A stretch of 64,000 nucleotides of DNA from Gammaproteobacteria bacterium (lineage in GTDB: Bacteria; Pseudomonadota; Gammaproteobacteria; Steroidobacterales; Steroidobacteraceae): contig JANYAD010000104.1 in assembly GCA_025355165.1 (NCBI GenBank), positions 1-64,000 of the forward strand. The letters are read 5' to 3'. The notes below the pieces were generated by a model. The model was given only the letters and a program-made list of their open reading frames with translations, was not told the origin of the DNA and ran no database searches. The stretch's first letter is position 1, and each line of letters starts with the position of its first letter. Below, in pieces: positions 10,154 through 25,987 of the stretch. The translations under genes and the position numbers were made by a program.

Positions 10154-11305
10154 GTGAGCCCACCGCAGGTGGCAGCCCCGCCGCATTCCTCCTGGTTCCA
10201 GCGTTACTTGCTGCCGGGATTTGCGTTCAAAGCGGTCGTCATTGGCGGCGGCTACGCCACCGGTCGCGAGTTGGCTGAATTTTTTCTGCCGAGCGGGCCG
10301 CGCGGCGGCTTACTCGCCATGCTGCTCGCGATGCTCATTTGGAGCGCGGTTTGCGCCGTGACTTTCGCTCTAGCCTACGCCACTCACAGCTGGAATTACC
10401 GGGCCTTTTTTCAGAATTTACTCGGGCCCTTCTGGGTGCTCTTCGAAGTTGCTTATCTACTCTTCATCATTTTAATTCTTGCGGTTTTCGGCGCAGCCTC
10501 CGGAGCAATCGGGACGGCCGTGCTCGGCTGGCCGCCGATCGCAGGCACCCTTTGCCTGATCGTTTGCATCAGTTTGGTGGCCGCCTATGGGACGGCATCC
10601 GTGGAACGCCTGTTCAAGTGGGTGTCGATATTTTTGTATGCGACGTACGGCATCTTCGTCGCGCTGTCGTTATTTGCGTTCGGTGACAAAATTCTGGCGA
10701 ATATGGCGGTTCCCGCGCCGGCACCCGGGTGGGTGCTCGGCGGCCTGACCTACGCAGGCTACAATGTGGTGGGCGCGGTGATCATTTTGCCGGTGTTGCG
10801 ACACCTGCGAAGCAACCGCAACGCGCTGCTCGCCGGGGCGCTGGCGGGACCACTGGCCATGCTGCCCGCGCTGCTGTTTTTCATCTGCATGATCGCCTAT
10901 TATCCGCAAATAGGCGCCGCAGCGCTGCCCTCGGACTATCTGCTGCACCGCCTGAATTTCCCGGCCTTTCATTATCTGTTCCAGCTCATGATCTTTCTCG
11001 CGCTGCTGGAGAGCGGCACAGGCTGCGTCCATGCGTTCAATGAGCGGGTAGCCCAGGCGTACGCGGCGCGCCGCGGCCGAAGCCTGACCAACGCGGCACG
11101 CCTATCGGTCACCGCCGTTCTTTTGCTGGGTTCGATTTTCCTGGCGGCCCGATTTGGCTTGGTCACCCTGATCGCCCGAGGCTATCGTGGGCTCGCTTAC
11201 TTATTTCTCGCGGTGTTCGTTGTGCCGGTCATGACCGTGGGAATACGGCAATTGTTGGCGCGATACGCGAAGTCCGCTAACGTCGGCGAGTCTTCGCCGC
11301 TTTAG
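10154..11305 (+). CDS. YkvI-like integral membrane protein, putative transporter
   Basis: 383 residues with about ten hydrophobic helices. The sequence FAFKAVVIGGGYATGRELAEFFLPSGPRGGL and the later LTYAGYNVVGAVIILPVLRHL block match the YkvI family of membrane proteins, related in layout to amino-acid transporters; no substrate is established. The GTG start is set by a stop three codons upstream. The last 29 bases overlap the convergent XRE-cupin regulator. Because it flanks that regulator and a peptide-catabolism operon, transport of an amino acid or small peptide is a reasonable inference, not a demonstrated role. Confidence 0.8.
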   Translation: MSPPQVAAPPHSSWFQRYLLPGFAFKAVVIGGGYATGRELAEFFLPSGPRGGLLAMLLAMLIWSAVCAVTFALAYATHSWNYRAFFQNLLGPFWVLFEVAYLLFIILILAVFGAASGAIGTAVLGWPPIAGTLCLIVCISLVAAYGTASVERLFKWVSIFLYATYGIFVALSLFAFGDKILANMAVPAPAPGWVLGGLTYAGYNVVGAVIILPVLRHLRSNRNALLAGALAGPLAMLPALLFFICMIAYYPQIGAAALPSDYLLHRLNFPAFHYLFQLMIFLALLESGTGCVHAFNERVAQAYAARRGRSLTNAARLSVTAVLLLGSIFLAARFGLVTLIARGYRGLAYLFLAVFVVPVMTVGIRQLLARYAKSANVGESSPL

Positions 11306-12032
11306 CCGGTGGCCGCGACGGCTCCGCACTTTTCGCCGGCACAGCTGGGCTCACATCGCCGTGCAGCGACATCAGCGAGTCCAACAGACTTTCATCCGTG
11401 CTCGAACACACGCCGAGCACGGTTGCCTCATCGCAGCCTTCCGCGGCGACGTAGGCATGGCCCATGTTGCTGTCGAGGTAGATCGATTCGCCTACGTTGA
11501 GACTGACCGGATCGTAGAACTCCGTGAGGACCTTGATGCCGCCTTTCAGGACGTAGATATATTCCTCGCCGGAATGGCGCACCAAATCGCCGAACTCTTG
11601 CGCGCTCTTGGCGCGGATGCGTGTCAAAATCGGAATCATGCGCTTTCGACGCAGTTCCGGGCACAAGTAGTAGTAGTCGTAGTTCTTGGTATTTACCCGG
11701 ACTGCATCGTCAGTAAGGCCGATGCTGCGGCGGGCTGTCACCGCCGGTTCGATGCTGTCCGCCGGATCAGCGAATAGCTCCGAGATGCGAATGTTGAGGC
11801 GCTGGCTCAGTTGTACGAGCTTGTCATAGGTGAGGGTGAGGCGGTCGTGCTCGACTTTCGACAACGTCGAGACGGGTATGTTGGTGCGCTGGCTCATTTC
11901 CTTCAGCGTCCAACCGTTTCTCGCGCGCAGCGAACGCAGCAGGCTCCCGAGCGTCGGGTGCCGCGTCTTCACGTCCATAGGGCCAGCGGCATCACTTTCT
12001 TTGATTCTCCTGCTAGAGGTCGTTTCCGGCAT
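11277..12032 (-). CDS. XRE-cupin transcriptional regulator
   Basis: 251 residues. Residues about 27-88 are an XRE helix-turn-helix (LGSLLRSLRARNGWTLKEMSQRTNIPVSTLSKVEHDRLTLTYDKL). Residues about 130-215 form a small cupin domain (SGEEYIYVLKGGIKVLTEFYDPVSLNVGESIYLDSNMGHAYVA). XRE-cupin proteins usually bind a small-molecule effector in the cupin barrel and control neighbouring amino-acid or polyamine catabolism genes. It is divergent from the dipeptidase-led operon, with 133 bases between the starts holding a palindromic element. The 3' end overlaps the convergent YkvI-like gene by 29 bases. Confidence 0.92.
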   Translation of the reverse strand: MPETTSSRRIKESDAAGPMDVKTRHPTLGSLLRSLRARNGWTLKEMSQRTNIPVSTLSKVEHDRLTLTYDKLVQLSQRLNIRISELFADPADSIEPAVTARRSIGLTDDAVRVNTKNYDYYYLCPELRRKRMIPILTRIRAKSAQEFGDLVRHSGEEYIYVLKGGIKVLTEFYDPVSLNVGESIYLDSNMGHAYVAAEGCDEATVLGVCSSTDESLLDSLMSLHGDVSPAVPAKSAEPSRPPAKAAKTRRR

Positions 12033-12103: not shown

Positions 12104-12141
12104 TTGACAATTCTCCAATCAGGATTAACCTGTCTTGATTG
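12104..12141 (+). promoter_or_regulatory. promoter and palindromic operator of the peptide-catabolism operon
   Basis: A perfect -35 box TTGACA (12104-12109) is followed after 16 bases by TAACCT (12126-12131), a weak -10. Two nested inverted repeats cover the -10: CAGG-ATTAA-CCTG at 12120-12132 and CAATCA (12116-12121) with TGATTG (12136-12141). The position, between the XRE-cupin gene and the operon it probably controls, suggests the regulator's binding site. Seen in sequence; function inferred. Confidence 0.55.
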
Positions 12142-12165
12142 CGACAGCATGTTGGGGTGCAAACA

Positions 12166-13350
12166 ATGTCGGCGGATACTAATTTTCGTCTGGGCCGACG
12201 TCGCTCGCTTGCTGCCATTGCAGGTTCCGTTGCGGCCCTCGCTGTGACGCGGCTCAATTCCAGTCTCGCCGCGCCGCGCACAGAGCCCAAAAGAGACTAT
12301 GCGGCCAAGGTCATCGATCTGGTCGAGCGTTCACTCGTCATCGACATGCTAGGGCCCCTCAAGCTTGATTTCACGCCCGAAGCGTATGCCATGCCGTTGA
12401 CCGATGCGGAGGCGGCGATGTTCCGCTCGAGCGGGATTACCGCATTTCACAATTCGGTGGGCGTCGGGGGGCTGAGCGCTTATGACGATGCGCTGCAATT
12501 CATCGCCGCATGGAGCGGATTCTGTGGGCGCAACCCGGACGTGTTTTCCCTCGTCGGGCGGGCAGAGGACATCGACCACGCGAAGGCGGGCAAGAAAATC
12601 GCGGTGATCATGGGTTTGCAGAACGCGGATGAGTTTCGCGAACCCAAGGACGTCAAAGTATTTTACGAACTGGGGCTGCGTTGCGCTCAGCTGACCTACA
12701 ACACCCAGAACCTCATCGGCAGCGGTTCGACCGAGCGGGTAGATGGCGGGATCAGCGATTACGGGATCCAAATCATCAAAGCGATGAACGAAGTGGGCAT
12801 GCTCATCGATGTTTCGCACAGCGGCGACCGCACCACCCTTGAGGCGATCGAACTCTCGCCCAAGCCCATCGCCTTCACGCATTCCAATTGCCGTGCGCTC
12901 AACGATCATCCGCGTCTGAAAACCGACGAGGCCATTCGCAAGCTGGCAGCGCACGGCGGCGTGATGGGCATCACCGGCGTGCGCAACTTCGTTAAGGACA
13001 AAGAGCCCACCACGGTGGAAGACATCGTCGATCACATCGATCATGTCGTAAAACTGGTCGGCATCGAGCACGTCGGTATCGGCACGGACTCAGACCTGAT
13101 GGGATACGACCACATGCCCGCCGATCAGTACAAGCAGCTCAAAGCAGGCTACAAAGCCTCCTACGCCTTCCGCGACAAAATCGACACCGATGGCTTCAAT
13201 CATCCGCGAAAGATCTACGACCTTACCGCAGCGTTGCTGCGCCGCGGATACAGCGATGCCAACATTCAAGCCGTGCTCGGCGGGAATTTCCGCCGCTTGC
13301 TCGGTAGCACGTGGATCGACATAAAGAGAAAACCCGAGGAAAAATCATGA
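12166..13350 (+). CDS. M19 membrane-dipeptidase family protein with Tat-type signal and altered metal ligands
   Basis: 394 residues from the ATG at 12166, which has a GGGG stretch upstream; a longer frame starts with TTG at 12139. Residues 10-36 form a twin-arginine-like signal (GRRRSLAAIAG... to SLAA). The rest follows renal-dipeptidase (peptidase M19) architecture: IDVSHSG (His218), FTHSN (His239) and VGIGTDSD are metal and substrate positions. However the usual N-terminal H-x-D is replaced by IDMLGPLKLD, and the bridging Glu region reads GLQNADEF (Gln152). The family cleaves dipeptides, including those with a C-terminal D-residue. It is first gene of the operon and overlaps the TonB receptor gene by 4 bases. 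Confidence 0.88.
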   Translation: MSADTNFRLGRRRSLAAIAGSVAALAVTRLNSSLAAPRTEPKRDYAAKVIDLVERSLVIDMLGPLKLDFTPEAYAMPLTDAEAAMFRSSGITAFHNSVGVGGLSAYDDALQFIAAWSGFCGRNPDVFSLVGRAEDIDHAKAGKKIAVIMGLQNADEFREPKDVKVFYELGLRCAQLTYNTQNLIGSGSTERVDGGISDYGIQIIKAMNEVGMLIDVSHSGDRTTLEAIELSPKPIAFTHSNCRALNDHPRLKTDEAIRKLAAHGGVMGITGVRNFVKDKEPTTVEDIVDHIDHVVKLVGIEHVGIGTDSDLMGYDHMPADQYKQLKAGYKASYAFRDKIDTDGFNHPRKIYDLTAALLRRGYSDANIQAVLGGNFRRLLGSTWIDIKRKPEEKS

Positions 13351-15557
13351 ATTTGACACTGAGACTCGCTGTCCTCGCCGTGCTCGGCACGGCAGGAATC
13401 TGCCTCGCGCCGCGCAGCTGGGCAGCGGATGCTCTGCCAGCGGATAACGCGGATGCCCTGAGCACCATCGTCGTGACGGCGGAGAAACGCGAGGAGAAGC
13501 TCAAGGATGTGCCCATGAGCGTCACCGCCTTGAGCGGCGATACGCTCGATAAGCACCAGTACCGGGATTTTCGCGACTATGCGGTAATGGTGCCGGGTTT
13601 GTCGCTGGTGAGCGGCCAGCCAGGCCTGACCACGCTGGCCCTGCGGGGCCAGAATGCCGGCGGCGTCGGTTCCACCGTGGCAGTCTACATCGACGAGTCG
13701 CCCTTCGGCTCCAGCAGTGCGTTGCTCAACGGGGCCATTCTCAGCGGCGACTTCGATACCTGGGACCTGCAGCGCGTCGAGGTGTTGCGTGGGCCCCAAG
13801 GCACCCTTTACGGCGCCAATAGCGAGGGCGGCTTGTTAAAATTCGTCACGCAAGCGCCGGTGCTGGGCAGCTTTTCGGGTGCCGGTGAAGTCACGGGTGA
13901 GAGCGTCGCGCACGGCGCGAATGGCGCCGACGTGCGCGGCGTCGTGAACCTGCCCATCGGTGATAAGATCGCCTTGCGCGTCGGCGGGTTCGACCAGGAC
14001 GTCGCCGGATATGTCAGCGATCCATCGCGCAAAATGGTGGATTTCAGTGGCGGGCACAAATATGGCGGCCGCGCTTCCTTGCTGTTCCAGCCCATCGACA
14101 GCCTGACCATTCGCCTGACCGGGACTTCACAACAGTCGAACTACAACGGGACCCCGGATGTCGATGTGAATCCGGTCACTTTCAGGCCGGCGGTAGGCGA
14201 TCTGCAGCAGGAGCGATTCGTCAATCAGCCGAGCTCTTTTCAATATAAGAACTACAACGCGACCATAACCTGGAATGCTGGGCCGTTCAGCATTTTATCG
14301 ACAACAACCTACGGCATTTTGAACTCCGATTTGTTCAGCGACGACACCAACGTGCAGATTGCGCCCGGCGTAACCTTCCAGACCGCACTCGGGGGGCTGG
14401 GAGCGACGCTCGACAATCTCGTCAATCTGAAGAAGTTTGCGCAGGAAGTTCGCGTATCCTCTGCGGCGAACGACTTCATTGAATGGCAGGTGGGCGGCTA
14501 TTTCACGCGCGAACAGGGCCATTTGTTTCAGCACTTGGTCGCGATCGACGTGCCGGCCGGTACTCCCACCGTCGGCCTCCCGGTACTGGAATTTGCGGAG
14601 CTGGATTCCATTTACAAAGAGTCTTCCGGATTCGGCAATGTGACAGTCCACGTCATCCCGCAATTCGACGTCCAGGCCGGCGGCCGCTATTCGAAGAACG
14701 AGCAAGTCGCCACCGAAAGTCTTTCCGGGCTGCTTGTGCCCGCGCCGATTTCCTTCAGTACACCCGCCTCCGGACATGTCTGGACCTATTCCGCGGCGCC
14801 GCGCTGGCATATTGACGCGGACAACATGCTCTATTTCCGTTGGGCAACGGGCTTCCGGCCGGGCGGGCCCAATGCATTGCCACCGGGGGCTCCGCCTGAT
14901 GTGCCGCGCCAGTTCGGCGCCGATAAGACCAGCAACTTAGAGCTCGGAATCAAATCGACCCTGTTGCAGGGGTTGCTGTCCATCGACGCCGCGTTCTTCC
15001 ATGTTGATTGGACCAACATCCAGCTGCTTGAGATCGTCAACGCGAATGGGGTCAACGGCAACGGCGGCAAGGCAAGAAGCCAGGGCTTCGAATGGGCTCT
15101 CGGCTATGTTCCGATTCACGGGCTGACCTTGCAATGGACGGCAGCTTACACGGACGCCAAGCTGACCACGGATGCGCCCGGGGTCAAAGGCCACACGGGC
15201 GACCGGCTGCCTTACGCTCCGAAGTGGGGTACCTCGGTGGATGGCGAATATGACGCACCTGCATTCGGTCAATGGAAATATCTGGTCGGTGCCACCTGGA
15301 GCTTTGTGGGCAACCGCAGCACTGATTTTGGCAGCGACCCAACCGCAAAGACCCAAGTGAGCTTGCCCAGCTACAACACGTACGGCGCGCGTGTCGGGCT
15401 CGACAATGATCTCTATCGGGTGACGCTGTACGCGAAGAACCTGAGCGATTCGCGCGGCATTACCAGCTACGCTTACAGCGGAGCCCCGGGTTTGAACGGC
15501 TCAATCGGTATCACTCAACCGCGCACGGTCGGCGTTACGTTGTCCGCAAAATTCTAA
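13347..15557 (+). CDS. TonB-dependent outer-membrane receptor
   Basis: 736 residues from the ATG at 13347, which overlaps the dipeptidase stop (ATGA) and follows a GAGGA site. Signal peptide to about residue 26 (PRSWA), TonB-box-like STIVVTA at 39-45, plug domain (KDVPMSVTALSGD; VEVLRGPQGTLYGANSEGG), then a 22-strand-type barrel ending with VGVTLSAKF. The plug's GPQGTLYG...GG and the C-terminal Phe are hallmarks. Receptors of this group import large or scarce substrates with energy from TonB-ExbBD. Since it is sandwiched between a dipeptidase and D-glutamate-type genes, peptides or muropeptide fragments are the likely cargo; this is inferred. Confidence 0.93.
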   Translation: MNLTLRLAVLAVLGTAGICLAPRSWAADALPADNADALSTIVVTAEKREEKLKDVPMSVTALSGDTLDKHQYRDFRDYAVMVPGLSLVSGQPGLTTLALRGQNAGGVGSTVAVYIDESPFGSSSALLNGAILSGDFDTWDLQRVEVLRGPQGTLYGANSEGGLLKFVTQAPVLGSFSGAGEVTGESVAHGANGADVRGVVNLPIGDKIALRVGGFDQDVAGYVSDPSRKMVDFSGGHKYGGRASLLFQPIDSLTIRLTGTSQQSNYNGTPDVDVNPVTFRPAVGDLQQERFVNQPSSFQYKNYNATITWNAGPFSILSTTTYGILNSDLFSDDTNVQIAPGVTFQTALGGLGATLDNLVNLKKFAQEVRVSSAANDFIEWQVGGYFTREQGHLFQHLVAIDVPAGTPTVGLPVLEFAELDSIYKESSGFGNVTVHVIPQFDVQAGGRYSKNEQVATESLSGLLVPAPISFSTPASGHVWTYSAAPRWHIDADNMLYFRWATGFRPGGPNALPPGAPPDVPRQFGADKTSNLELGIKSTLLQGLLSIDAAFFHVDWTNIQLLEIVNANGVNGNGGKARSQGFEWALGYVPIHGLTLQWTAAYTDAKLTTDAPGVKGHTGDRLPYAPKWGTSVDGEYDAPAFGQWKYLVGATWSFVGNRSTDFGSDPTAKTQVSLPSYNTYGARVGLDNDLYRVTLYAKNLSDSRGITSYAYSGAPGLNGSIGITQPRTVGVTLSAKF

Positions 15558-15567
15558 TGGCGGTGGC

Positions 15568-16629
15568 ATGAACACGAAACGTGGGCTGCAGCCGCGGGAG
15601 GCGAGAAGCTCGCAGGTGCTGGATCTACCTCAGCCGTATCTGCTGTTTCTGGGCGACTCCACGGAGAAGGGGTACGCCAAGACGGCGTTCGGGCTGCGTG
15701 ACTGGGCCCCCGATCGGTGCGTCGGCGAATGGTCCTGTGCCGGTGCGACGGTCAGCACCGGGCTAGCGCGTTTGACTCCCAAAGAAGCGCGCGCCCGCGG
15801 TGCGAAAGCCCTGGTGATTGGTGTGGCGAATACCGGCGGGGTGATCAGCGAGAGCTGGCTGCCCTCGCTCATGGAGGCGCTCGAGTCAGGTCTTGACATT
15901 ATTAGCGGCATGCACGCAAAACTGGCCGATGTGCCGCAGTTGAAAAGTATGGCGGAGCACACAGGGCGCAGGCTTATCGATGTGCGGACGCCGCCACGCA
16001 CGATTACCATCGCCACCGGCGCGAAGCGATCCGGAAAGCGATTGCTTACAGTAGGCACGGATTGCGCTATTGGCAAAAAGTACACCGCCCTCGCTCTGGC
16101 ACGCGCCTTTACTCAGCGCGGTATCGATAATGATTTTCGTGCGACCGGCCAGACCGGGATTTTGATCGCGGGCGGCGGTATGCCGATGGATGCGGTGATA
16201 GCCGACTTTGAAGCCGGAGCGGCTGAGATGCTGAGCCCCGATGCAGCCGCGCAGCATTGGGATGTGATTGAAGGTCAGGGTTCTCTATTCCATCCGGCGT
16301 ATGCGGGCGTATCGCTGGGACTGCTGCACGGCAGTCAACCCGACGTAATTGTTGTGTGCCATGACCCGGATCGAAAGCAGGTGCTGGGTCTGCCGATTTC
16401 ATTGCCAGACCTCGCCGAAACAATCGACATGAATTTGCGCCTGGGGCGAAGGACCAATCCCACCATTCGGTGCGCAGGGGTCAGCTTGAACACCTCGGAC
16501 TTGGACGAGAACACGGCGATACGATTGCTTGCGGACGAGAGCGCACGCTTGGGTTTGCCGGTGGCGGACCCGATGCGCGCCGGCGAGGCGTTCGAGCGGC
16601 TCGTCGATGAATGTCTCAAACAAAACTAA
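15568..16629 (+). CDS. dgcN: DUF1611 protein, D-glutamate N-acetyltransferase-like (DgcN family)
   Basis: 353 residues. The N-terminal part (about 20-140) has a Rossmann-like pattern, and residues 163-173 form a P-loop-like motif, GTDCAIGKKYT, diagnostic of DUF1611. Later blocks include RATGQTGILIAGGG and WDVIEGQGSLFHPAYAGVSLGLLHG. DUF1611 members called DgcN acetylate D-glutamate in a pathway in which an enolase-superfamily enzyme, DgcA, then racemises N-acetyl-D-glutamate. A DgcA-like gene lies two genes downstream, so the assignment is well supported by context, though not proven for this sequence. It starts 10 bases after the receptor's stop codon. Confidence 0.85.
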   Translation: MNTKRGLQPREARSSQVLDLPQPYLLFLGDSTEKGYAKTAFGLRDWAPDRCVGEWSCAGATVSTGLARLTPKEARARGAKALVIGVANTGGVISESWLPSLMEALESGLDIISGMHAKLADVPQLKSMAEHTGRRLIDVRTPPRTITIATGAKRSGKRLLTVGTDCAIGKKYTALALARAFTQRGIDNDFRATGQTGILIAGGGMPMDAVIADFEAGAAEMLSPDAAAQHWDVIEGQGSLFHPAYAGVSLGLLHGSQPDVIVVCHDPDRKQVLGLPISLPDLAETIDMNLRLGRRTNPTIRCAGVSLNTSDLDENTAIRLLADESARLGLPVADPMRAGEAFERLVDECLKQN

Positions 16630-16657
16630 CAGCGACAGCGTCGCGAAAAGAGAACCT

Positions 16658-18634
16658 ATGCGCAAGCTCACCCCAATGTCCGCGCTCTGCATGCTATGCA
16701 TGAGCGTCGCTGCACAAAATGCTTCTTCTCCGGTATCGAAAGCCGCCGCTCTGGCCGCTATAGCGCCAAGTGCCACCGCCATGGAAGCGGTGCCCTTGAC
16801 GGCGCAAGATCTCAACGCTTGGCTCGACGGATACATGCCCTACGCGCTGCACAGCGGAGACATCGCGGGCGCCGTGGTTGCGGTCGTTAAGGACGGGCAA
16901 GTATTGACCGAGCGTGGTTACGGGTATTCAGACGTGGCGGCGCACACACCGGTGGATCCCAAACTGACGCTATTCAGGCCGGGCTCGGTGTCGAAACTCG
17001 TTACCTGGACCGCGGTGATGCAACTGGTGGAGCAAGGCAAGATCGATCTCGATGCCGACATTAATCAGTATCTGGACTTCAAGATTCCGCAGCGCGAGGG
17101 CAAGCCGGTCACCATGCGCAACCTCATGCAGCACACCGCGGGTTTCGAAGAGCAGGCGAAGGGCATTTTGTCGGAGGACCCGAAGTCGCTGCGGTTCGAA
17201 GCCCTGCTCAAGCAGTGGGTTCCGGAGCGCGTGTTCGCCCCGGGTAGCACGCCGGCCTACTCCAATTATGGGGCTTCGCTTGCCGGCTACATTGTGCAGC
17301 GTCTTTCCGGGGAGTCGTTCGATGATTACGTCGAGAAGCATATTTTCGTGCCGCTCGACATGAAATATTCATCCTTTCGTCAGCCGCTGCCATCGAACCT
17401 CGAGCCGCTGATGTCCAAGGGGTATGTGCTAGCGTCCGACACGCAGAAAAAGTTTGAGTTCATCGGTCCAGCGCCCGCCGGTTCGCTGTCCTCGCCGGGC
17501 GAGGACATGGCGCATTTCATGATCGCGCACCTACAAAACGGCGAATATCACGGCAACCGGATTCTGCGCGCGGAGACTGCCGAAATGATGCACAACAGTC
17601 CGCTCACCGTCCTGCCCCCGCTCAACCGAATGGAACTGGGATTCTTCGAAACCAATATCAATGGACGCGAGGTGATCGCGCACCTCGGCGACACGCAGGC
17701 TTTTCACACCTCGCTTCATCTGTTCCTCAAGGAGGGCGTGGGTTTTTACGTCTCATTCAACAGCGTGGGAAAAAAGGGCGCGGCCGGCGGATTGCGCGGG
17801 GCGTTGTTCGAAGATTTTGCGGACCGCTATTTTCCCGTCGCCGAGACGGTCACCGGCATCGACCAGAGCACCGCGGCCAAAGACGCCGCCCTGCTGAAGG
17901 GCAGTTGGGGCAACTCGCGCGCGTCGCAATCAAGTTTCTTGTCCTCGCTGGGTTTATTCGGCCAAACGAAAATTAGCACCAATGCCAAGGGAGAACTCGT
18001 CACCCCGCTTAAGGGGCTGAACGAAAAGCCGCGCCGCTGGATTGAAACGGCGCCCCTTGTCTGGCGCGATCAGGACAGTCACGAACGGCTGGCCGCCAAG
18101 GTGCAAGACGGCCGAGTGGTGAGATTCAGCATCGATGGCATCTCGCCCTTCATGGTGTTCGATCGGGTGCCCTGGTATGAGGATGCCGCCTGGTTGTTAC
18201 CGGCGTTGTACGCTTCTTTGGCGGCGCTCTTGCTCACGGCGTTGTTCTGGCCCATCAAAGCCCTTGTGCGCCGAAGCTATGGCGTCACCCTGGCACTCGA
18301 TGCTCACGCGCTGCGCTCCTATCGTCTCGGCAAGATCGGCGCCATCTTGATGCTTGCGGGTTTGGGAGTATGGGCTTTGACCGTCATTCGAATGTTCGGC
18401 GATTTCAACAATCTCAGCAACAAATTCGACGCCACCGTGCGCTTCTCGCAGCTGTTCGGCATCGTCGCCTTCATCGGCGGCTTCGCATTGATTTTATGGA
18501 ACCTTTGGACTGTTTGGAGCGGCGAGCGTCGCTGGCCGGCAAAGCTGTGGAGCGTGGTGCTGGTTTTCTCGGCGCTCACGGTTCTTTGGATCGCGAACGC
18601 ATTTCATCTGATCGGTTTCGGGCTGGATTTTTGA
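16658..18634 (+). CDS. serine hydrolase (class C beta-lactamase fold) with C-terminal membrane domain
   Basis: 658 residues from the ATG at 16658; the longer open frame runs back inside the dgcN-like gene. A signal peptide (about 1-20) leads to a penicillin-binding-protein/beta-lactamase domain with catalytic S110-x-x-K113 (PGSVSKLV) and Y201-S-N203. Residues about 510-658 carry four hydrophobic helices (WLLPALYASLAALLLTALFW; IGAILMLAGLGVWALTVI; GIVAFIGGFALILWNLWTVW; LWSVVLVFSALTVLWIANAF), so the enzyme is anchored with its active site outside the cytoplasm. Relatives include D-Ala-D-Ala carboxypeptidases, D-aminopeptidases and esterases. It lies between the DgcN- and DgcA-like genes and overlaps the latter by one base. 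Confidence 0.88.
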   Translation: MRKLTPMSALCMLCMSVAAQNASSPVSKAAALAAIAPSATAMEAVPLTAQDLNAWLDGYMPYALHSGDIAGAVVAVVKDGQVLTERGYGYSDVAAHTPVDPKLTLFRPGSVSKLVTWTAVMQLVEQGKIDLDADINQYLDFKIPQREGKPVTMRNLMQHTAGFEEQAKGILSEDPKSLRFEALLKQWVPERVFAPGSTPAYSNYGASLAGYIVQRLSGESFDDYVEKHIFVPLDMKYSSFRQPLPSNLEPLMSKGYVLASDTQKKFEFIGPAPAGSLSSPGEDMAHFMIAHLQNGEYHGNRILRAETAEMMHNSPLTVLPPLNRMELGFFETNINGREVIAHLGDTQAFHTSLHLFLKEGVGFYVSFNSVGKKGAAGGLRGALFEDFADRYFPVAETVTGIDQSTAAKDAALLKGSWGNSRASQSSFLSSLGLFGQTKISTNAKGELVTPLKGLNEKPRRWIETAPLVWRDQDSHERLAAKVQDGRVVRFSIDGISPFMVFDRVPWYEDAAWLLPALYASLAALLLTALFWPIKALVRRSYGVTLALDAHALRSYRLGKIGAILMLAGLGVWALTVIRMFGDFNNLSNKFDATVRFSQLFGIVAFIGGFALILWNLWTVWSGERRWPAKLWSVVLVFSALTVLWIANAFHLIGFGLDF

Positions 18635-19635
18635 TGCCGGCGCTGCAGCTGCGCGTGGAGGTCGAGAAACTGCGCCTCTGCGCACCGTTTCGGATTTCGG
18701 GGTTTGTATTCGACGAGCAGGATGTGGTCATCGCCACTGTCGCGGACGGAGTTTATCGCGGCCGTGGGGAAGCCTCGGGTGTTTACTATTTAGGCGATAC
18801 CGCGCAGGCGATGGTGGCGGCAATCGAAGCGGCGCGGGAGAACATCGAAGCGGGCGCGGATCGGGCCGCGCTCCAGGCATTGATGCCGCCCGGGGGTGCG
18901 CGCAATGCCATTGATTGCGCTTTGTGGGAACTCGATGCGCAACGCTCAGGCATGCCGGTGTGGCAGCTGGCCGGTCTGCCGCCGCCCAAGTCTCTAATTA
19001 CTACCTTCACCCTAGGGGCGGACGAGCCTTCAAGGATGGCCGAAGGCGCACGCAAGTACGCCCAGGCGCGGGCGCTGAAACTGAAATTGACCGGCGATCT
19101 TTCACTCGACATCGATCGGGTGCGCTCGGTGCGCGCGGCTCGTCCCGAGGTGTGGATGGGCGTAGATGCGAATCAGGGCTACGCCATCGATGCGCTCGAT
19201 TCGCTCGTGGCCGCGCTGCTGCCATTGGACATCTCGCTGCTCGAACAACCCTTGAAACGCGGGCGCGAGGCGGACTTGGATGGCTACCACTGCAAGATCC
19301 CCATTGCGGCCGACGAAAGCGCGCTCAGCATGCGAGATATTCCCGGCCTGGTGGGACGTTTCCAAGTGGTGAATATCAAGTTGGACAAGTGCGGCGGACT
19401 GACCGAAGGGCTGGCGATGGCGCATGAGGCGCGGCGACTTGGTCTTCGCGTCATGGTGGGCAATATGGTGGGCACGAGTCTCGCGATGGCGCCTGCCTTC
19501 GTGCTCGGGCAACTGTGCGACGTGGTGGATCTGGATGGGCCGATATTCTTGGCTCAGGATCGAAAGCCCAGCATGACTTACTCCGATGGCAAGGCGTGGA
19601 GCGGTGAGCATGTATGGGGAGGGACGAGCGCTTAA
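18634..19635 (+). CDS. dgcA: enolase-superfamily dipeptide epimerase / N-acetyl-D-glutamate racemase-like (DgcA family)
   Basis: 333 residues; the ATG shares one base with the previous stop (TGATG). The muconate-lactonising subgroup signature is complete: K149-x-K151 (LKLKL), metal ligands D178 (VDANQGY), E204 (LEQPL) and D227 (AADES), and the second base region K249-x-D-K252 (IKLDKCGG). Such enzymes are L-Ala-D/L-Glu epimerases or, when paired with DUF1611 DgcN, racemases for N-acetyl-D-glutamate. The context favours conversion of D-Glu units to the L-form. Cytoplasmic, no signal peptide. Confidence 0.88.
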   Translation: MPALQLRVEVEKLRLCAPFRISGFVFDEQDVVIATVADGVYRGRGEASGVYYLGDTAQAMVAAIEAARENIEAGADRAALQALMPPGGARNAIDCALWELDAQRSGMPVWQLAGLPPPKSLITTFTLGADEPSRMAEGARKYAQARALKLKLTGDLSLDIDRVRSVRAARPEVWMGVDANQGYAIDALDSLVAALLPLDISLLEQPLKRGREADLDGYHCKIPIAADESALSMRDIPGLVGRFQVVNIKLDKCGGLTEGLAMAHEARRLGLRVMVGNMVGTSLAMAPAFVLGQLCDVVDLDGPIFLAQDRKPSMTYSDGKAWSGEHVWGGTSA

Positions 19636-19638
19636 GGC

Positions 19639-20952
19639 ATGAGCGCGAATCAGCAAACTTGGTTCGGCCAGCCGCGCGGACTCACCGTCCTGTTTCTGAC
19701 CGAGATGTGGGAGCAGTTTTCTTACTACGGTATGCGCGCGCTGTTGGTCTACTACATGACCAAGCAATTGCTCATCGCGCAGGAAAAGGCCTCCTTAATT
19801 TATGGCACTTACACGGCATTGGCGTATTTCACGCCGATCTTCGGCGGCATCATCGCCGATCGGTGGCTGGGCAAGCGCCGTGCAGTGATCATCGGCGGCG
19901 GCATCATGGCGGCCGGCCATTTCATGATGACGTTCGAACCTCTTTTTTACTTCGCTCTTGCCACGATTGCGCTCGGCAACGGTTTGTTCTTGCCGAGCTT
20001 GCCTAGTCAAATCGACGGTCTTTATCTCCCCGCAGACCCGCGCCGCGGTTGGGCCTATAACCTCTATTACGTCGGCATCAACATCGGCGGATTTCTCGCG
20101 CCGCTGATATGCGGCACCCTCGGTGAGTTTTACGGTTGGCATTGGGGTTTCGGCGCGGCCGGTCTCGGCATGCTCACCGGTCTCGTTATTTACATACTCG
20201 GCGGCAAGCATTTGCCGGAACAGGTGCGCGTCGGGGAAAACCTTCGGCTCAGATCTCGGGCACCGGCTGCGAGCTTGCGGTCCACTTTTGTTTTGCTGTT
20301 CGGCGTCGGTGTTGCGGTGACGGTATTTCGGGGGGCCTATGAACAAGTGGGCAATACCGTGGCATTGTGGGCCGACGTGGGAATCAATCGCACGAACGCT
20401 GCAATGAGCATTCCCATGACATGGTTCCAGGCGCTCAATCCATTGTTGGTCATCATCATGACGCCTCTGCTGCTCGCGCGCTGGCGACGAGGCGCCGATG
20501 CAGGTCGCGCCCACTTCTCCATGAGGAAAATGGCCTTCGGCGCGTTGCTGGTCGCTGCGGCTTATCTGCTGCTCGCCACGGTGGCATTTGCCGCCGGCAC
20601 CGGGCGCGCCGGCTGGATGTGGCTGGTTTTATTTTTCGTAATCTTTACCCTGGGCGAACTCTACATCTTGCCTACCGGGCTGGGTCTGTTCGCGCGGCTC
20701 GCGCCCATTGGATTCGGTGCCACCACCGTCGCGGCGTGGTTTCTCGCTATTTTCAGCGGCTCACTGACGGCAGGAGCGGTGGGCACGCTGTGGGGGCGCA
20801 TCGGCCACCCACAATTTTTTGCCGTTCTGGCGGTGATGGCGGCCATTGCCGCGGCCATGCTGCTCATGCTTGATGGCGCGATACGGCGCATCGAGGCGGC
20901 GCGAGCCTCAGAAACTACCCTCTTGAGCGAAATTAATCCGGAGCTCGTATGA
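19639..20952 (+). CDS. POT-family proton-dependent oligopeptide transporter
   Basis: 437 residues with about 12-14 predicted helices. The PTR2 motifs are clear: EMWEQFSYYGMRALLVYYMTK near the N-terminus (E-x-F-x-Y-Y-G-M), then GGIIADRWLGKRR, and YYVGINIGGFLAPLICG. POT proteins import di- and tripeptides across the inner membrane, driven by the proton gradient. It starts 3 bases after the DgcA-like stop and overlaps the next serine hydrolase by 4 bases, so it is the inner-membrane step of the same peptide-use operon. Confidence 0.93.
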   Translation: MSANQQTWFGQPRGLTVLFLTEMWEQFSYYGMRALLVYYMTKQLLIAQEKASLIYGTYTALAYFTPIFGGIIADRWLGKRRAVIIGGGIMAAGHFMMTFEPLFYFALATIALGNGLFLPSLPSQIDGLYLPADPRRGWAYNLYYVGINIGGFLAPLICGTLGEFYGWHWGFGAAGLGMLTGLVIYILGGKHLPEQVRVGENLRLRSRAPAASLRSTFVLLFGVGVAVTVFRGAYEQVGNTVALWADVGINRTNAAMSIPMTWFQALNPLLVIIMTPLLLARWRRGADAGRAHFSMRKMAFGALLVAAAYLLLATVAFAAGTGRAGWMWLVLFFVIFTLGELYILPTGLGLFARLAPIGFGATTVAAWFLAIFSGSLTAGAVGTLWGRIGHPQFFAVLAVMAAIAAAMLLMLDGAIRRIEAARASETTLLSEINPELV

Positions 20953-22517
20953 AAATTTTAATGCTGATGCCGCTAATTGTTTGCGCAGCTGCTTTTGCGG
21001 CGCCGCCGGCCGGGTTCGAGGCCCGGGTGGAAAACTTGCGCAAGGACATCGGCGTCCCCGGCATGGCCATCGCCATTGTCGAGAACGATCAGGTCACGAT
21101 GGCTAAAGGCTACGGTGTCAAGCGCCTGGGCTCATCCGATGTTATCGATGCCGATACTATTTTTCCGACCGGTTCCACCGGCAAGGCATTCACCGTCGCT
21201 GCGCTCGGCATTCTCGTCGATCAAGGAAAGATCGGCTGGGACGACAAAGTGATCGATCATTTGCCCGGTTTCCAGATGTACGACCCTTGGGTAACGCGCG
21301 AGATGAGCATCCGCGACCTGCTGGTTCATCGCAGCGGATTGGGGCTGGGAGCGGGAGATTTGTTATTCGTGCCTCGAACCAATTTGAGCCGGGCCGAATC
21401 GGTGCGGCGGCTGCGCTACATCAAGCCTGCGAGCAGTTTTCGAAGCGGCTTTGCCTACGATAATATTCTTTACATGGTGGCTGGTCAGCTGATCGAGGAT
21501 GTCAGCGGCGAGACATGGGAGAGATTCACCGCCGAGCACGTGCTCAAGGCGGCCGGAATGCTGCATTCCACCACCGATAACGAAGGCCATTTCGCCGCTG
21601 TCGACCGTGCGCAGCCACACGCCCGCATGAATGGGGGGTTGCGCGGAGTCGGAGATCAATCGGTCTTGAACGAGCGCGATAACCTGGGCAGCAATGCCTC
21701 TCCCGCCGGCGGATTGGCGGTCAGCGCCAACGACATGGCGCGCTGGCTGATGATTCAGCTCAACGGCGGCGCGCTTCCCGGCAGTGACGGCAGGCTATTC
21801 AGTCAGGCGGCGCACGATCAAATGTGGACACCGCTAGTGCTCCAGCCGATCGCACCGCGCTCGGGTGCGTTGGCGCCGACTCAGCCCATGTTCAATACTT
21901 ATGCGCTGGGGTGGGACGTCCGCGACTACCGCGGTGCGAAAATTGTCTGGCATGGCGGCGCGGTGTTCGGATTCCTCACCGCAGTGGTGCTCATTCCCGA
22001 AAAACATGTCGGGTTCTCGATCGAGATCAACAGCGAGGATGGCGAAATCATTGTTGGATTGATGTACGAATTGCTCGATCACTATCTCGGCTTGCCGGCC
22101 GACACCTGGCCTGAAAAAATTCGAGCTGACAAGACACAGCGCGTGCAGGAGGCCTTGAAGGTGTATCGCGCGGCCGCGGCCAAACCCGCTAAAATCGGTC
22201 CTTCGCTTCCGCCGGCGCGTTATGTCGGCACTTATGCCGATCCTTGGTATGGCAATATCGAAATCGGGCAATTTAGGGGCGGCCTGACCATCGATTTTAA
22301 ATCCACACCGCGCATGGGTGGGACGCTAGAACACTGGCAGCACGACAGTTTCGTTACGCGATTCGACGATAAAACCATCGAGCCGGCTTATGTGACCTTC
22401 GGTCTCGATGCCGAGGGCAAGGTCGAGCGCGTGACCATGAAGGCGGTGTCGCCTCTGGCCGACTTCAGCTACGACTATCAGGATTTATTGTTTACCCCGC
22501 TTGCCGCTCAAAAATAG
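20949..22517 (+). CDS. secreted serine hydrolase, D-aminopeptidase/AmpC-like
   Basis: 522 residues. A signal peptide ends near AAAFA (about residue 18). The beta-lactamase-family catalytic domain has S76-T-G-K79 (PTGSTGKAF) and Y170-D-N172, with a His-Gly-Gly third motif at VWHGGAVFG. A C-terminal domain of about 130 residues (from about 390, ARYVGTYADPWYGNIEIGQ) resembles the lipocalin-like DUF3471-type tail found on D-stereospecific aminopeptidases. It lacks the membrane tail of the other serine hydrolase in the operon, so the two are not simple duplicates. The 4-base overlap with the transporter shows coupling; it is the last gene of the operon. Confidence 0.88.
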   Translation: MKILMLMPLIVCAAAFAAPPAGFEARVENLRKDIGVPGMAIAIVENDQVTMAKGYGVKRLGSSDVIDADTIFPTGSTGKAFTVAALGILVDQGKIGWDDKVIDHLPGFQMYDPWVTREMSIRDLLVHRSGLGLGAGDLLFVPRTNLSRAESVRRLRYIKPASSFRSGFAYDNILYMVAGQLIEDVSGETWERFTAEHVLKAAGMLHSTTDNEGHFAAVDRAQPHARMNGGLRGVGDQSVLNERDNLGSNASPAGGLAVSANDMARWLMIQLNGGALPGSDGRLFSQAAHDQMWTPLVLQPIAPRSGALAPTQPMFNTYALGWDVRDYRGAKIVWHGGAVFGFLTAVVLIPEKHVGFSIEINSEDGEIIVGLMYELLDHYLGLPADTWPEKIRADKTQRVQEALKVYRAAAAKPAKIGPSLPPARYVGTYADPWYGNIEIGQFRGGLTIDFKSTPRMGGTLEHWQHDSFVTRFDDKTIEPAYVTFGLDAEGKVERVTMKAVSPLADFSYDYQDLLFTPLAAQK

Positions 22518-23708: not shown

Positions 23709-24551
23709 ATGAAAGGCAAAGTCGTCGTGATAACCGGTGCGACCTCGGGCATTGGCGAGGTGGCCGCTGCGCAGCTGGCCGCGATGGGCGCACGCATCGT
23801 GATGGTCGCGCGCGAGGTGACGCGTGGCCAGGAGATGTTGGCACGGCTCGCCGCCGTCGCGGGCGGCAGCGCCCATGCTGTCTACTATGCGGATCTGTCG
23901 CTGATCGCCGAAAGCAAACGTGTTGCCGCGCAAATCATCGCGGCGCATCCGCGCGTAGATGTGCTCATCAACAACGCCGGCGCCTTGTTCAGTTCACGCG
24001 AAATGACGGCGGATAATCTGGAGAAGACCTTCGCCACCAATCACATGGCGTACTTCGTGTTGACCTTGGGGTTGCGCGCCAGTTTGCTGGCGGGCGCCCC
24101 GGCGAGAGTCGTCAGTACTGCCTCTGCCGCCCACAGGGGTTACACGTTGGACTTCGACGACCTGCAAAGCGAGAAGGGGTATAGCGCGATGAGAGCGTAC
24201 GGTCGCTCCAAGCTGTGCAACATTTTGTTCACTCGCGAGCTTGCGCGCCGCTGGAAGGGCATGGGTATTACCGCTAACTGCCTGCACCCCGGGTTCGTTG
24301 CCACCCGATTCGGCGATGCAAGCGGCGGTGTGCTATCCCGGGTGGTGCGAATGGCCAAGACCTTCGCAATTTCCCCCGAGAAGGGCGCGCAGACCCTGGT
24401 CCACTTGGCTTCGTCTCCCGATGTTGCCAAACTCAGCGGTGAGTATTTCTATCAATGCCGTCGTGCGGTGCCGACCGAAGGTGGCCGTGACGACGCGGCT
24501 GCCGGGCGCCTGTGGCAAGAATCCTCAAAGATTGCAACGATCGATAACTAG
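23709..24551 (+). CDS. short-chain dehydrogenase/reductase (retinol-dehydrogenase-like)
   Basis: 280 residues of classical SDR type: NAD(P)-binding TGATSGIG (9-16), structural NNAG (88-91), catalytic Ser about 138 (VVSTASAAHRG) and Y164-x-x-x-K168 (YGRSK), followed by CLHPGFVATRFG. The spacing and the HRG-after-Ser pattern resemble the retinol/WW-domain oxidoreductase group, but the true substrate is unknown. It is followed 8 bases later by an M20 peptidase, so the pair is probably co-transcribed. Confidence 0.92.
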   Translation: MKGKVVVITGATSGIGEVAAAQLAAMGARIVMVAREVTRGQEMLARLAAVAGGSAHAVYYADLSLIAESKRVAAQIIAAHPRVDVLINNAGALFSSREMTADNLEKTFATNHMAYFVLTLGLRASLLAGAPARVVSTASAAHRGYTLDFDDLQSEKGYSAMRAYGRSKLCNILFTRELARRWKGMGITANCLHPGFVATRFGDASGGVLSRVVRMAKTFAISPEKGAQTLVHLASSPDVAKLSGEYFYQCRRAVPTEGGRDDAAAGRLWQESSKIATIDN

Positions 24552-24559
24552 GATATTGA

Positions 24560-25987
24560 ATGTACAAACAACTATACGCCGCCGTATTCGGTCTGGCGGC
24601 TGCCATGCAAGGGACAGCACCGGCGCAGGAAGCGCAGATGGAGCCGCTGCGGCCCGACCAAGTGGCTTTTCGCGCACTTTATAAGGAGCTGGTTGAGACC
24701 AATACCACCTTGTCGTCGGGAAGCTGCACGGCCGCGGCGCAGCGGATGGGTGCGCATCTGAAAGCAGCGGGCTTTTCGGGCAAGGACCTTACCTATTTTG
24801 CCGTTTCCGAGCACCCGAAAGAAGGCGGCTTGGTCGCCATTTTGCCAGGCGGCTCAAGCAGTGCGAAGCCCATGTTGTTGTTGGGGCACTTGGATGTGGT
24901 CGAAGCCAAGCGCGAAGATTGGACCCGCGATCCGTTCACCTTGATCGAAGAGAATGGATATTTTTATGGCCGCGGCACGGCGGACATGAAGGCCCTGGAC
25001 GCCACCTGGGTGGATATGCTGATTCGCTTCAAGAACAGCGGCTACCACCCGATTCGCACCATCAAGCTTGCGCTGACCTGCGGGGAGGAAACCACTTATG
25101 CGTTCAATGGCGCCCAGTGGCTGGCGAAGAATAAGCCGGATCTAATTGCCGCAGCCTTCGCGCTCAACGAAGGCGGCGGTGGGCGAACCGACGGTCACGG
25201 CAAGCTGATGGTAGAAGCCATTCAGGTGGGGGAAAAAGCATCGCAAAACTACCGGCTGGAGTCGCTCAATGTCGGCGGACATAGTTCCATTCCCATCCGG
25301 GATAACGCGATTTACCAACTGGCCGATGCCCTGACCAAGATTCGCGATCACGAGTTTCCGGTGAAGCTTTCCGATACCACCCGAGCCTTCTTCGCGAAGG
25401 CGGGTGCGGCACGGGCTGACGATCTGGGGGCCGCGATGGTGGCGTTGTCGAAAAATTCGAGCGACAAGGCCGCCGAGGTGATCGTTTCCAAAGATCGCAG
25501 CTACCACAGCATGTTGCGCACCACCTGCGTCGCGACCTTGCTGGAAGGCGGTCATGCCAACAATGCCCTGCCGCAACGCGCTGCCGCGAACGTCAACTGC
25601 CGCATTTTTCCGGGTGAAACAGTCGAAGCGACCCAGGCCGCGCTGGTCGCGGCCATTGGCGATACAGGCGTGAAGGTCACAGCGGTGCCGCCCATTCGCC
25701 CCCTTGCCGTGCCGCCGCCGCTGGACGCCATGATTATTGGTCCGGCAGAAACGTTGGTCGCCAAGTACTTTCCAGGCGTGCCGCTCATTCCTTCCATGTC
25801 GACCGGGGCGACCGATGGCATCTTTCTGGAGGCTATCGGCATTCCGGTCTATGGAGTGCCTGGCGGCTGGGGCGACCCGGATGGCAACGGCGTCCATGGT
25901 TTGAACGAGCGCCGCAGCGTGCGATCGGTCTACATCGGGCGCGATTTTCTAACCGAGCTAGTAAAATTGTACGCCGACTCAGGCTAG
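24560..25987 (+). CDS. secreted M20/M25/M40 metallopeptidase
   Basis: 475 residues with a probable signal peptide (to about residue 22, GTAPAQ). The zinc sites of family M20 are present: H110 and catalytic D112 (GHLDVV), bridging D142 (GTADMK), E176/E177 (CGEET), and a downstream SHSN-like dimerisation block GGHSSIP; the last ligand His is likely in [10 protein letters not shown]. Family members are dinuclear zinc carboxypeptidases, aminoacylases or dipeptidases. The export signal suggests a periplasmic peptidase, in line with the peptide-degrading theme of the left part of the window. Confidence 0.9.

What the first reader, a model, noticed from the sequence alone, without database searches (positions are those of the whole stretch)
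12104..22517. Seven-gene operon that looks like a complete D-amino-acid peptide uptake and degradation system
Every gene is either overlapping or within 30 bases of the next: M19 dipeptidase-like (12166), TonB receptor, DUF1611 DgcN-like, serine hydrolase with membrane tail, DgcA-like racemase, POT transporter, serine hydrolase. Outer-membrane uptake, periplasmic or surface D-specific hydrolases, inner-membrane di/tripeptide import and cytosolic D-Glu conversion are all in one transcript. D-Glu is a core part of peptidoglycan, so muropeptides are the likely cargo. DgcN-DgcA has been described for D-glutamate in marine bacteria; the addition of the receptor, transporter and two serine hydrolases in one operon is, as far as I know, not described.
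Basis: partly seen in the sequence, partly recalled or inferred. Interest (0 to 1): 0.82.

Follow-up and report, generated by a model that had tools for sequence, protein, structure and literature searches.

The report
Conserved D-glutamate-peptide scavenging operon
This is a real, tightly packed and widely conserved bacterial gene set, probably switched by its own regulator, that most likely imports peptides containing the mirror-image amino acid D-glutamate, cuts them up and turns the D-glutamate into ordinary glutamate; its peptide transporter is a relative of the one in the microcystin-degradation cluster.

Summary
The seven co-directional genes at 12166-22517 are real (gaps -4, 10, 28, -1, 3, -4 bases). 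They are a rearranged version of a conserved cassette: XRE-cupin regulator, two S12 serine hydrolases, DgcA-like racemase, POT transporter, TonB receptor, DgcN-like protein and an APC-fold transporter, often with an M19 protein. It occurs in Xanthomonadaceae, sphingomonads and other Alphaproteobacteria, and a second copy with nearly the same order lies in the same genome. That site (3 mismatches allowed) occurs once in this 4.16 Mb genome; across 99 loci almost every copy lies in a cassette or cassette fragment. Gene order is not fixed. The M19 protein lacks canonical metal ligands, and the transporter lacks the ExxER arginine and TM4 lysine. All 26 cassette transporters share these losses with microcystin-cluster MlrD; 12 other POTs in the same genomes keep them. 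D-Glu-containing peptide scavenging is the best reading; peptidoglycan cargo is plausible but unproven. New variant of a known kind.

The parts
10154..11305 (+). YKV: membrane protein with no Pfam/NCBIfam match, predicted APC-superfamily (LeuT-fold) amino-acid transporter; conserved cassette member
   Evidence: No family hits; orthologues directly follow DgcN in most cassette loci; AlphaFold2 model pLDDT 87.4; Foldseek matches include BasC, LAT1, AdiC, ApcT
11277..12032 (-). REG: XRE helix-turn-helix + cupin transcription regulator, divergent from the operon
   Evidence: HTH_3 + Cupin_2; 59-80% identical orthologues in the same divergent position in cassette loci
12104..12125 (+). Conserved promoter/operator TTGACAATTCTCCAATCAGGAT (first six bases are a perfect -35 TTGACA)
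   Evidence: Within 2 mismatches of the 12-base core in 18 of 25 REG-first-gene intergenic regions (mononucleotide shuffles mean 0.28, max 2); only site at <=3 mismatches in the 4.16 Mb genome, none for the reversed control; 32 sites in cassette loci, 3 elsewhere
12166..13350 (+). Non-canonical Peptidase_M19-family protein with N-terminal Tat-like signal (GRRRSLAAIAG)
   Evidence: PF01244 271.9 bits; closest PDB sequence 2i5g; HxD replaced by IDM and bridging Glu by Gln
13347..15557 (+). TonB-dependent outer-membrane receptor
   Evidence: PF07715 Plug and TBDR profile hits
15568..16629 (+). DgcN-like (DUF1611) protein, proposed D-Glu N-acetyltransferase
   Evidence: NF041892 458.9 bits, cut-off 480; family-wide invariant residues present; closest PDB sequence 7xrj; tree
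16658..18634 (+). SH1: exported S12 serine hydrolase with four C-terminal TM helices
   Evidence: PF00144; SxxK, YSN, HLG intact; hydrophobic segments 510-654 of the protein
18634..19635 (+). DgcA-like enolase-superfamily racemase/epimerase
   Evidence: NF042940 369.5 bits, cut-off 400, L-Ala-D/L-Glu epimerase model 225.7; K149, K151, D178, E204, D227, K249 and D299xD301 invariant in both clades
19639..20952 (+). POT peptide transporter of a motif-altered subfamily shared with MlrD
   Evidence: TIGR00924 277.9 bits, cut-off 130.2; EMWEQF and GNGLFLPS motifs; tree
20949..22517 (+). SH2: exported S12 serine hydrolase with DUF3471
   Evidence: PF00144 + PF11954; STGK, YDN, HGG intact; PDB matches include ClbP and alkaline D-peptidase

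Best explanation
A dedicated, regulated scavenging system for peptides that contain D-glutamate. The TonB receptor takes the peptides across the outer membrane. The exported S12 hydrolases (and the M19-family protein, if active) trim them in the periplasm. The atypical POT carries short peptides, and the APC-fold protein probably free amino acids (perhaps D-Glu), into the cytosol. There the DgcN-like enzyme N-acetylates D-Glu and the DgcA-like enzyme racemises N-acetyl-D-Glu to N-acetyl-L-Glu, which enters the L-Glu/arginine pool. The XRE-cupin regulator controls the unit through the site at 12104. Shown: gene content, conserved association, conserved dedicated site, intact catalytic residues of the S12 and DgcA-like proteins, predicted fold of the APC-like protein. 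Inferred: enzyme activities, direction of flow, that REG binds the site, cargo identity. Peptidoglycan stem peptides are the most abundant candidate cargo.
For: Family assignments. SH1 accompanies DgcN in 25 of the 30 named loci with closest DgcN, and in none of the more distant DgcN loci at the same cut-off; of the 5 without it, 2 lie on truncated contigs. Cassette DgcN and DgcA form clades nested in the wider families. Paralogous operon in the same genome. Site specific to cassettes, in operon orientation, before the first gene and often again before the TonB-receptor block, so these genes look like one regulon. Linked D-aminoacylase-like Amidohydro_3 genes and canonical M19 genes in other loci. 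MlrD, in a cluster that degrades D-Glu-containing microcystin, falls beside the cassette POTs and shares their lost residues. DgcN/DgcA activities: EC 2.3.1.312 and 5.1.1.25 as cited in PMC11747546; DgcN-DgcA pathway in PMC10845958 and PMC12363236.
Against: No experiment. DgcN-like and DgcA-like proteins score just below the curated equivalog cut-offs. DgcA retains the DxD motif typical of dipeptide epimerases, so it may act on dipeptides. M19 lacks canonical metal ligands. Receptor sequences diverge (about 25-59% identity), so cargo may vary between loci. A few close DgcN relatives (L019, L021, L023) lack the cassette.
Confidence: 0.68

Rival explanations
1. The cargo is specifically peptidoglycan stem peptides (L-Ala-gamma-D-Glu-DAP and shorter); a muropeptide-scavenging operon.
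For: D-Glu is a core peptidoglycan residue and such peptides are abundant in soil (general knowledge). Near relatives of the racemase are L-Ala-D/L-Glu epimerases. S12 enzymes include D-Ala carboxypeptidases and AmpH. A class A beta-lactamase is linked in L010 and L022, and amino-sugar genes (NagK-like and AgaS-like, below cut-off) lie beside the cassette in L006.
Against: No amidase, LD-carboxypeptidase, gamma-D-Glu-DAP endopeptidase or amino-sugar gene is part of the conserved cassette. The AgaS/NagK-like link was seen in one locus, on the opposite strand. The closest cluster of known function sharing the POT subfamily degrades microcystin, not peptidoglycan.
Confidence: 0.42
2. It processes D-Glu-containing secondary metabolites (microcystin/nodularin-like cyanopeptides or other non-ribosomal peptides), as food or as detoxification.
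For: MlrD groups with the cassette POTs (38-43% identity vs 22-30% to other POTs; clade support 0.82) and shares the lost Arg and Lys. The mlr cluster in L119 also has S12 MlrB, an M19 gene 44% identical to M19s of cassette loci L114/L031, a D-aminoacylase-like gene and a nearby TonB receptor.
Against: MlrA and MlrC counterparts are absent from the operon. MlrB is only 24-33% identical to SH1/SH2, and the D-aminoacylase match is generic, about 31%. The cassette is widespread, suggesting a common cargo.
Confidence: 0.2
3. The DgcA-like enzyme is a dipeptide epimerase: imported L-Ala-D-Glu becomes L-Ala-L-Glu and ordinary peptidases finish the job; the DgcN-like protein handles only spilled free D-Glu.
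For: DxD motif retained; RefSeq names it 'dipeptide epimerase'; E. coli L-Ala-D/L-Glu epimerase 1jpd is the second-best PDB match; POT in the same operon.
Against: The DgcA model scores much higher than the epimerase model (369.5 vs 225.7). The gene stays with a DgcN-like gene in cassette and non-cassette loci. DxD is equally invariant in non-cassette DgcA, so it does not discriminate.
Confidence: 0.25
4. A generic D-amino-acid nutrient island: independent peptide and D-Glu genes placed together without a shared pathway.
For: Gene order varies and single members drop out; receptor sequences are diverse.
Against: Same gene set across families, common dedicated site, paralogous operon.
Confidence: 0.07

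Closest known systems
DgcN-DgcA D-glutamate catabolic pathway (described in marine Proteobacteria and haloarchaea)
   Same: Homologous DUF1611 protein and N-acetyl-D-Glu racemase-like enzyme in one gene cluster
   Different: Here they form a separate clade (just below equivalog cut-offs) inside a regulon with TonB receptor, atypical POT, APC-fold transporter and S12 hydrolases; DgcN and DgcA are separated by SH1 in the window
mlr microcystin-degradation cluster (mlrA-D) of sphingomonads
   Same: Exported S12 hydrolase (MlrB) plus POT (MlrD) acting on a D-Glu-containing peptide; MlrD shares the altered POT motifs and groups with the cassette POTs
   Different: No MlrA (CAAX-type) or MlrC (M81) in the operon; MlrB only distantly related to SH1/SH2; no DgcN-DgcA found in the mlr stretch read (L119)
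dgcN-dgcA with glutathione-type ABC transporter on Klebsiella/Enterobacter plasmids
   Same: DgcN-DgcA next to a peptide-type transporter
   Different: ABC importer, no TonB receptor, POT or S12 hydrolases in the stretch read
Atypical POT DtpC of E. coli
   Same: ExxER replaced (NxxEY) with the second Glu kept (PMC9309889)
   Different: The cassette POTs also replace the TM4 Lys with Leu, and are shorter (437 aa in the window)

Membership tests
DgcN (NCBIfam NF041892, equivalog) | Curated score cut-off 480 bits | tested here: not met
   458.9 bits over the whole model; nested clade of the family in the tree. Called DgcN-like, not DgcN
DgcN (NCBIfam NF041892, equivalog) | D-Glu N-acetyltransferase activity | not testable with these tools
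   Needs enzyme assay
DgcA N-acetyl-D-Glu racemase (NCBIfam NF042940) | Curated score cut-off 400 bits | tested here: not met
   369.5 bits, best of all models. Called DgcA-like
DgcA / dipeptide epimerase (enolase superfamily) | KxK, D/E/D metal ligands and catalytic K | tested here: met
   K149/K151, D178, E204, D227, K249 invariant
POT / PTR2 (TIGR00924, PF00854) | Family score cut-off | tested here: met
   277.9 vs 130.2; 137.2 vs 27
Canonical POT | E1xxE2R and TM4 Lys | tested here: not met
   EMWEQ and GNGLFLP; cassette POTs with readable motifs plus MlrD lack the Arg and the Lys, while 12/12 paralogues from the same genomes have them
Peptidase M19 | Pfam cut-off | tested here: met
   271.9 vs 26
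Canonical M19 (renal-type) dipeptidase | Binuclear metal ligands HxD, Glu, His, His plus Asp | tested here: not met
   HxD -> IDM, Glu -> Gln; two His and Asp kept; the closest cassette M19s (L005, L010, L022, L030, L031) agree
S12 serine hydrolases (PF00144) | SxxK, YxN, HxG motifs | tested here: met
   SH1 SVSK/YSN/HLG; SH2 STGK/YDN/HGG
AmpH / D-aminopeptidase / class C beta-lactamase equivalogs | NCBIfam cut-offs | tested here: not met
   SH1 77.7 vs 266, 57.4 vs 443, 75.5 vs 415
mlr cluster | mlrA and mlrC present | tested here: not met
   No CAAX-type or M81 family hit among the operon proteins
APC-superfamily amino-acid transporter | LeuT/APC fold | tested here: met
   Predicted model only: Foldseek probability 1.00 to BasC, LAT1, AdiC, ApcT; TM-scores about 0.6, 11-16% identity
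APC-superfamily amino-acid transporter | Amino-acid transport activity | not testable with these tools
   Needs uptake assay

The most novel reading that the evidence does not exclude
The cassette is an undescribed, dedicated D-Glu-isopeptide uptake regulon with its own POT subfamily that has dropped the residues that normally clamp the peptide C-terminus, as an adaptation to D- or gamma-linked peptides; the microcystin-degrading mlr cluster was assembled in part from relatives of it.
Probability: 0.35. Interest if true: 0.75.

Novelty: new variant of a known kind. Interest (0 to 1): 0.6.

Why it matters
D-amino acids of bacterial cell walls are a large, slowly degraded pool of organic nitrogen. 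The route from free D-Glu to L-Glu via DgcN-DgcA is known, but how Gram-negative bacteria take in D-Glu locked in peptides is less clear. This gene set gives a testable candidate from outer membrane to cytosol, with a ready reporter (the 12104 promoter). It also places the unexplained microcystin transporter MlrD beside a transporter subfamily with a guessable substrate class.

Tried and rejected
YKV-SH2 gene fusion in L031: rejected, an overlapping reading frame. Substrate-diagnostic residues between cassette and non-cassette DgcA: none found. MlrB as a close relative of SH1 or SH2: rejected, 24-33% identity. PDB profile search with the APC-like protein: no hit by sequence, answered by fold. 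Downstream SDR and M20 genes (23709-25987) as operon members: rejected, more than 1.1 kb away and not seen as cassette genes. Sigma-70 scan: no more promoters than shuffles, and it did not list the 12104 site because its -10 is poor. The original DgcN-DgcA paper was not found in the library. Some ORF frames picked by the greedy caller were wrong; tblastn was used instead.
Full report
OBSERVATION. The seven ORFs are present with the stated order, strand and spacing: M19 12166-13350, TonB receptor 13347-15557, DUF1611 15568-16629, S12 hydrolase SH1 16658-18634, DgcA-like 18634-19635, POT 19639-20952, S12 hydrolase SH2 20949-22517. Gaps are -4, 10, 28, -1, 3 and -4 bases. Upstream and divergent lies an XRE-cupin regulator (11277-12032), and beyond it a membrane protein without family match (10154-11305).

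CONSERVATION. The window's DgcN-like protein was used to fetch 80 named loci and loci in relatives. tblastn of the nine window proteins shows a recurring cassette, typically REG(divergent) | SH1-DgcA-POT-(M19)-TBDR-DgcN-YKV-SH2, in Lysobacter, Luteimonas, Pseudoxanthomonas, Arenimonas, Sphingomonas, Novosphingobium, Caulobacter and others; Glycocaulis and Oceanicaulis carry a reduced form. SH1 is present in 25 of the 30 named loci with the closest DgcN (60-76% identity); two of the five without it lie on truncated contigs and three (L019, L021, L023) are real exceptions. No locus with more distant DgcN (below about 60% identity) has SH1 at the same cut-off, although L060 and L064 hold diverged SH1/SH2/TBDR relatives at 30-39%. 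Cassette DgcN and DgcA sequences form clades nested in the wider families. RefSeq plasmid records of Novosphingobium, Croceicoccus and Sphingobium show the same cluster, annotated gene by gene. The window's own genome carries a second operon on contig C173 with the order TBDR-DgcN-SH1-DgcA-POT-S12; the first five are 41-74% identical to the window proteins, the last S12 is only a 25% relative of SH2. So the window order is one rearrangement of a conserved gene set; in the wider group order is not fixed. Among the 23 genomes of the window's genus that were searched, the cassette was seen only in G000 and G021, so it is patchy.

OPERATOR. Intergenic regions between REG and the first gene share gTTGACAATTCTCYnATYAGGATcATTAT. 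18 of 25 match the 12-base core within 2 mismatches; mononucleotide shuffles average 0.28, maximum 2. In whole genomes the 22-base site with up to 3 mismatches occurs once in G000 (at 12104) and one to four times in eight others, mostly on the contigs and at the positions of the cassette; the reversed control gives none. Across 99 loci, 32 sites lie in 30 cassette loci (21 of them have at least one), all on the operon strand, between REG and the first gene or before the TonB-receptor block, with a few variants (after a DgcA gene in L014, before DgcN in L014, upstream of DgcA in truncated L068). Only 3 lie in 69 other loci, of which two are truncated cassettes. In Xanthomonadaceae there are thus probably two co-regulated transcripts; in the window one site precedes all seven genes. 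That REG binds it is inferred from position and co-occurrence. The site starts with a perfect -35 hexamer.

PARTS. S12 hydrolases: catalytic motifs intact. SH1 has four C-terminal hydrophobic helices; SH2's PDB matches include ClbP and an alkaline D-peptidase. D-specificity cannot be read from sequence. DgcA-like: all catalytic residues and the DxD motif are invariant in cassette and non-cassette sequences, so N-acetyl-D-Glu racemase and dipeptide epimerase cannot be separated; the DgcA profile scores far above the epimerase profile. DgcN-like: 458.9 bits against a cut-off of 480. M19: the window protein and its closest cassette relatives replace HxD by IDM and the bridging Glu by Gln while keeping two His and the Asp (the ligand roles are from general knowledge of renal dipeptidase); other cassette loci carry a canonical M19 instead or as well (L114, L109, L008, L011, L031). 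YKV: AlphaFold2 model (pLDDT 87.4) matches APC-fold amino-acid transporters. POT: the cassette POTs with readable motifs lack the Arg of ExxER and have Leu for the TM4 Lys, whereas 12 of 12 POT paralogues from the same genomes keep both. In canonical POTs the Arg contacts the substrate C-terminus, and E. coli DtpC works with NxxEY (PMC9309889). Altered recognition of the peptide C-terminus is therefore expected, and uptake is still possible.

LINK TO mlr. A published mlrA primer (PMC6563193) found one Sphingomonadaceae contig with a complete mlr cluster. Its MlrD is 38-43% identical to cassette POTs and 22-30% to other POTs, groups with them (support 0.82; cassette-only clade 0.95) and shares both losses. 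The contig also has an M19 gene 44% identical to those of L114/L031, a D-aminoacylase-like gene and a TonB receptor. MlrB is only 24-33% identical to SH1/SH2. MlrB and MlrD properties are from PMC12474180. Only one mlr cluster was compared.

MECHANISM AND CARGO. The parsimonious reading is scavenging of D-Glu-containing peptides. D-Glu N-acetyltransferase (EC 2.3.1.312) and N-acetyl-D-Glu racemase (EC 5.1.1.25) are cited in PMC11747546, and the DgcN-DgcA route in PMC10845958 and PMC12363236. Further D-amino-acid genes (Amidohydro_3 of the D-aminoacylase type, my reading of a generic family hit) accompany the cassette in several loci. Peptidoglycan is the most abundant source of such peptides, but the cassette lacks the usual muropeptide enzymes, so I keep that as the leading cargo guess only.

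NOVELTY. Literature searches in the held open library found no description of this gene set; the original DgcN-DgcA paper and most subscription journals are not held, so this is weak evidence of absence. New variant of a known kind: DgcN-DgcA catabolism extended to a regulated peptide-uptake system.

Noticed in passing
L119 (G424:C30:426500-440400): Complete mlr microcystin cluster (MlrB, MlrD, MlrA, MlrC) with a canonical M19 dipeptidase gene, a D-aminoacylase-like gene and a TonB receptor alongside.
   Followed up: partly
G041 (genome of L019, Sphingosinicella sp. MCMED-G19): Seven DgcN-family copies in one 3.6 Mb genome; the cassette-type site occurs four times there, two of them on contig C2 and one on C16, which carry DgcN copies.
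   Followed up: no
L010 11008-11988 and L022 12163-13170: A class A beta-lactamase (above the NCBIfam cut-off) sits inside or next to the cassette in these alphaproteobacterial loci.
   Followed up: no
L115 (NZ_CP069863.1 41258-54259): Klebsiella plasmid with dgcN-dgcA followed by a glutathione-type ABC transporter; DgcN is also on other Klebsiella and Enterobacter plasmids in the collection.
   Followed up: no
L065, L068, L073: Contigs labelled Verrucomicrobia MAG carry cassette genes 71-73% identical in DgcN to the window, so they may be misbinned or recently transferred.
   Followed up: no
L024 7046-8188: A SapR-like regulator (weak match, below cut-off) lies within the cassette between POT and SH2.
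   Followed up: no
window 24560-25987: M20-family metallopeptidase (PRK09133 type) about 2 kb downstream, outside the operon.
   Followed up: no
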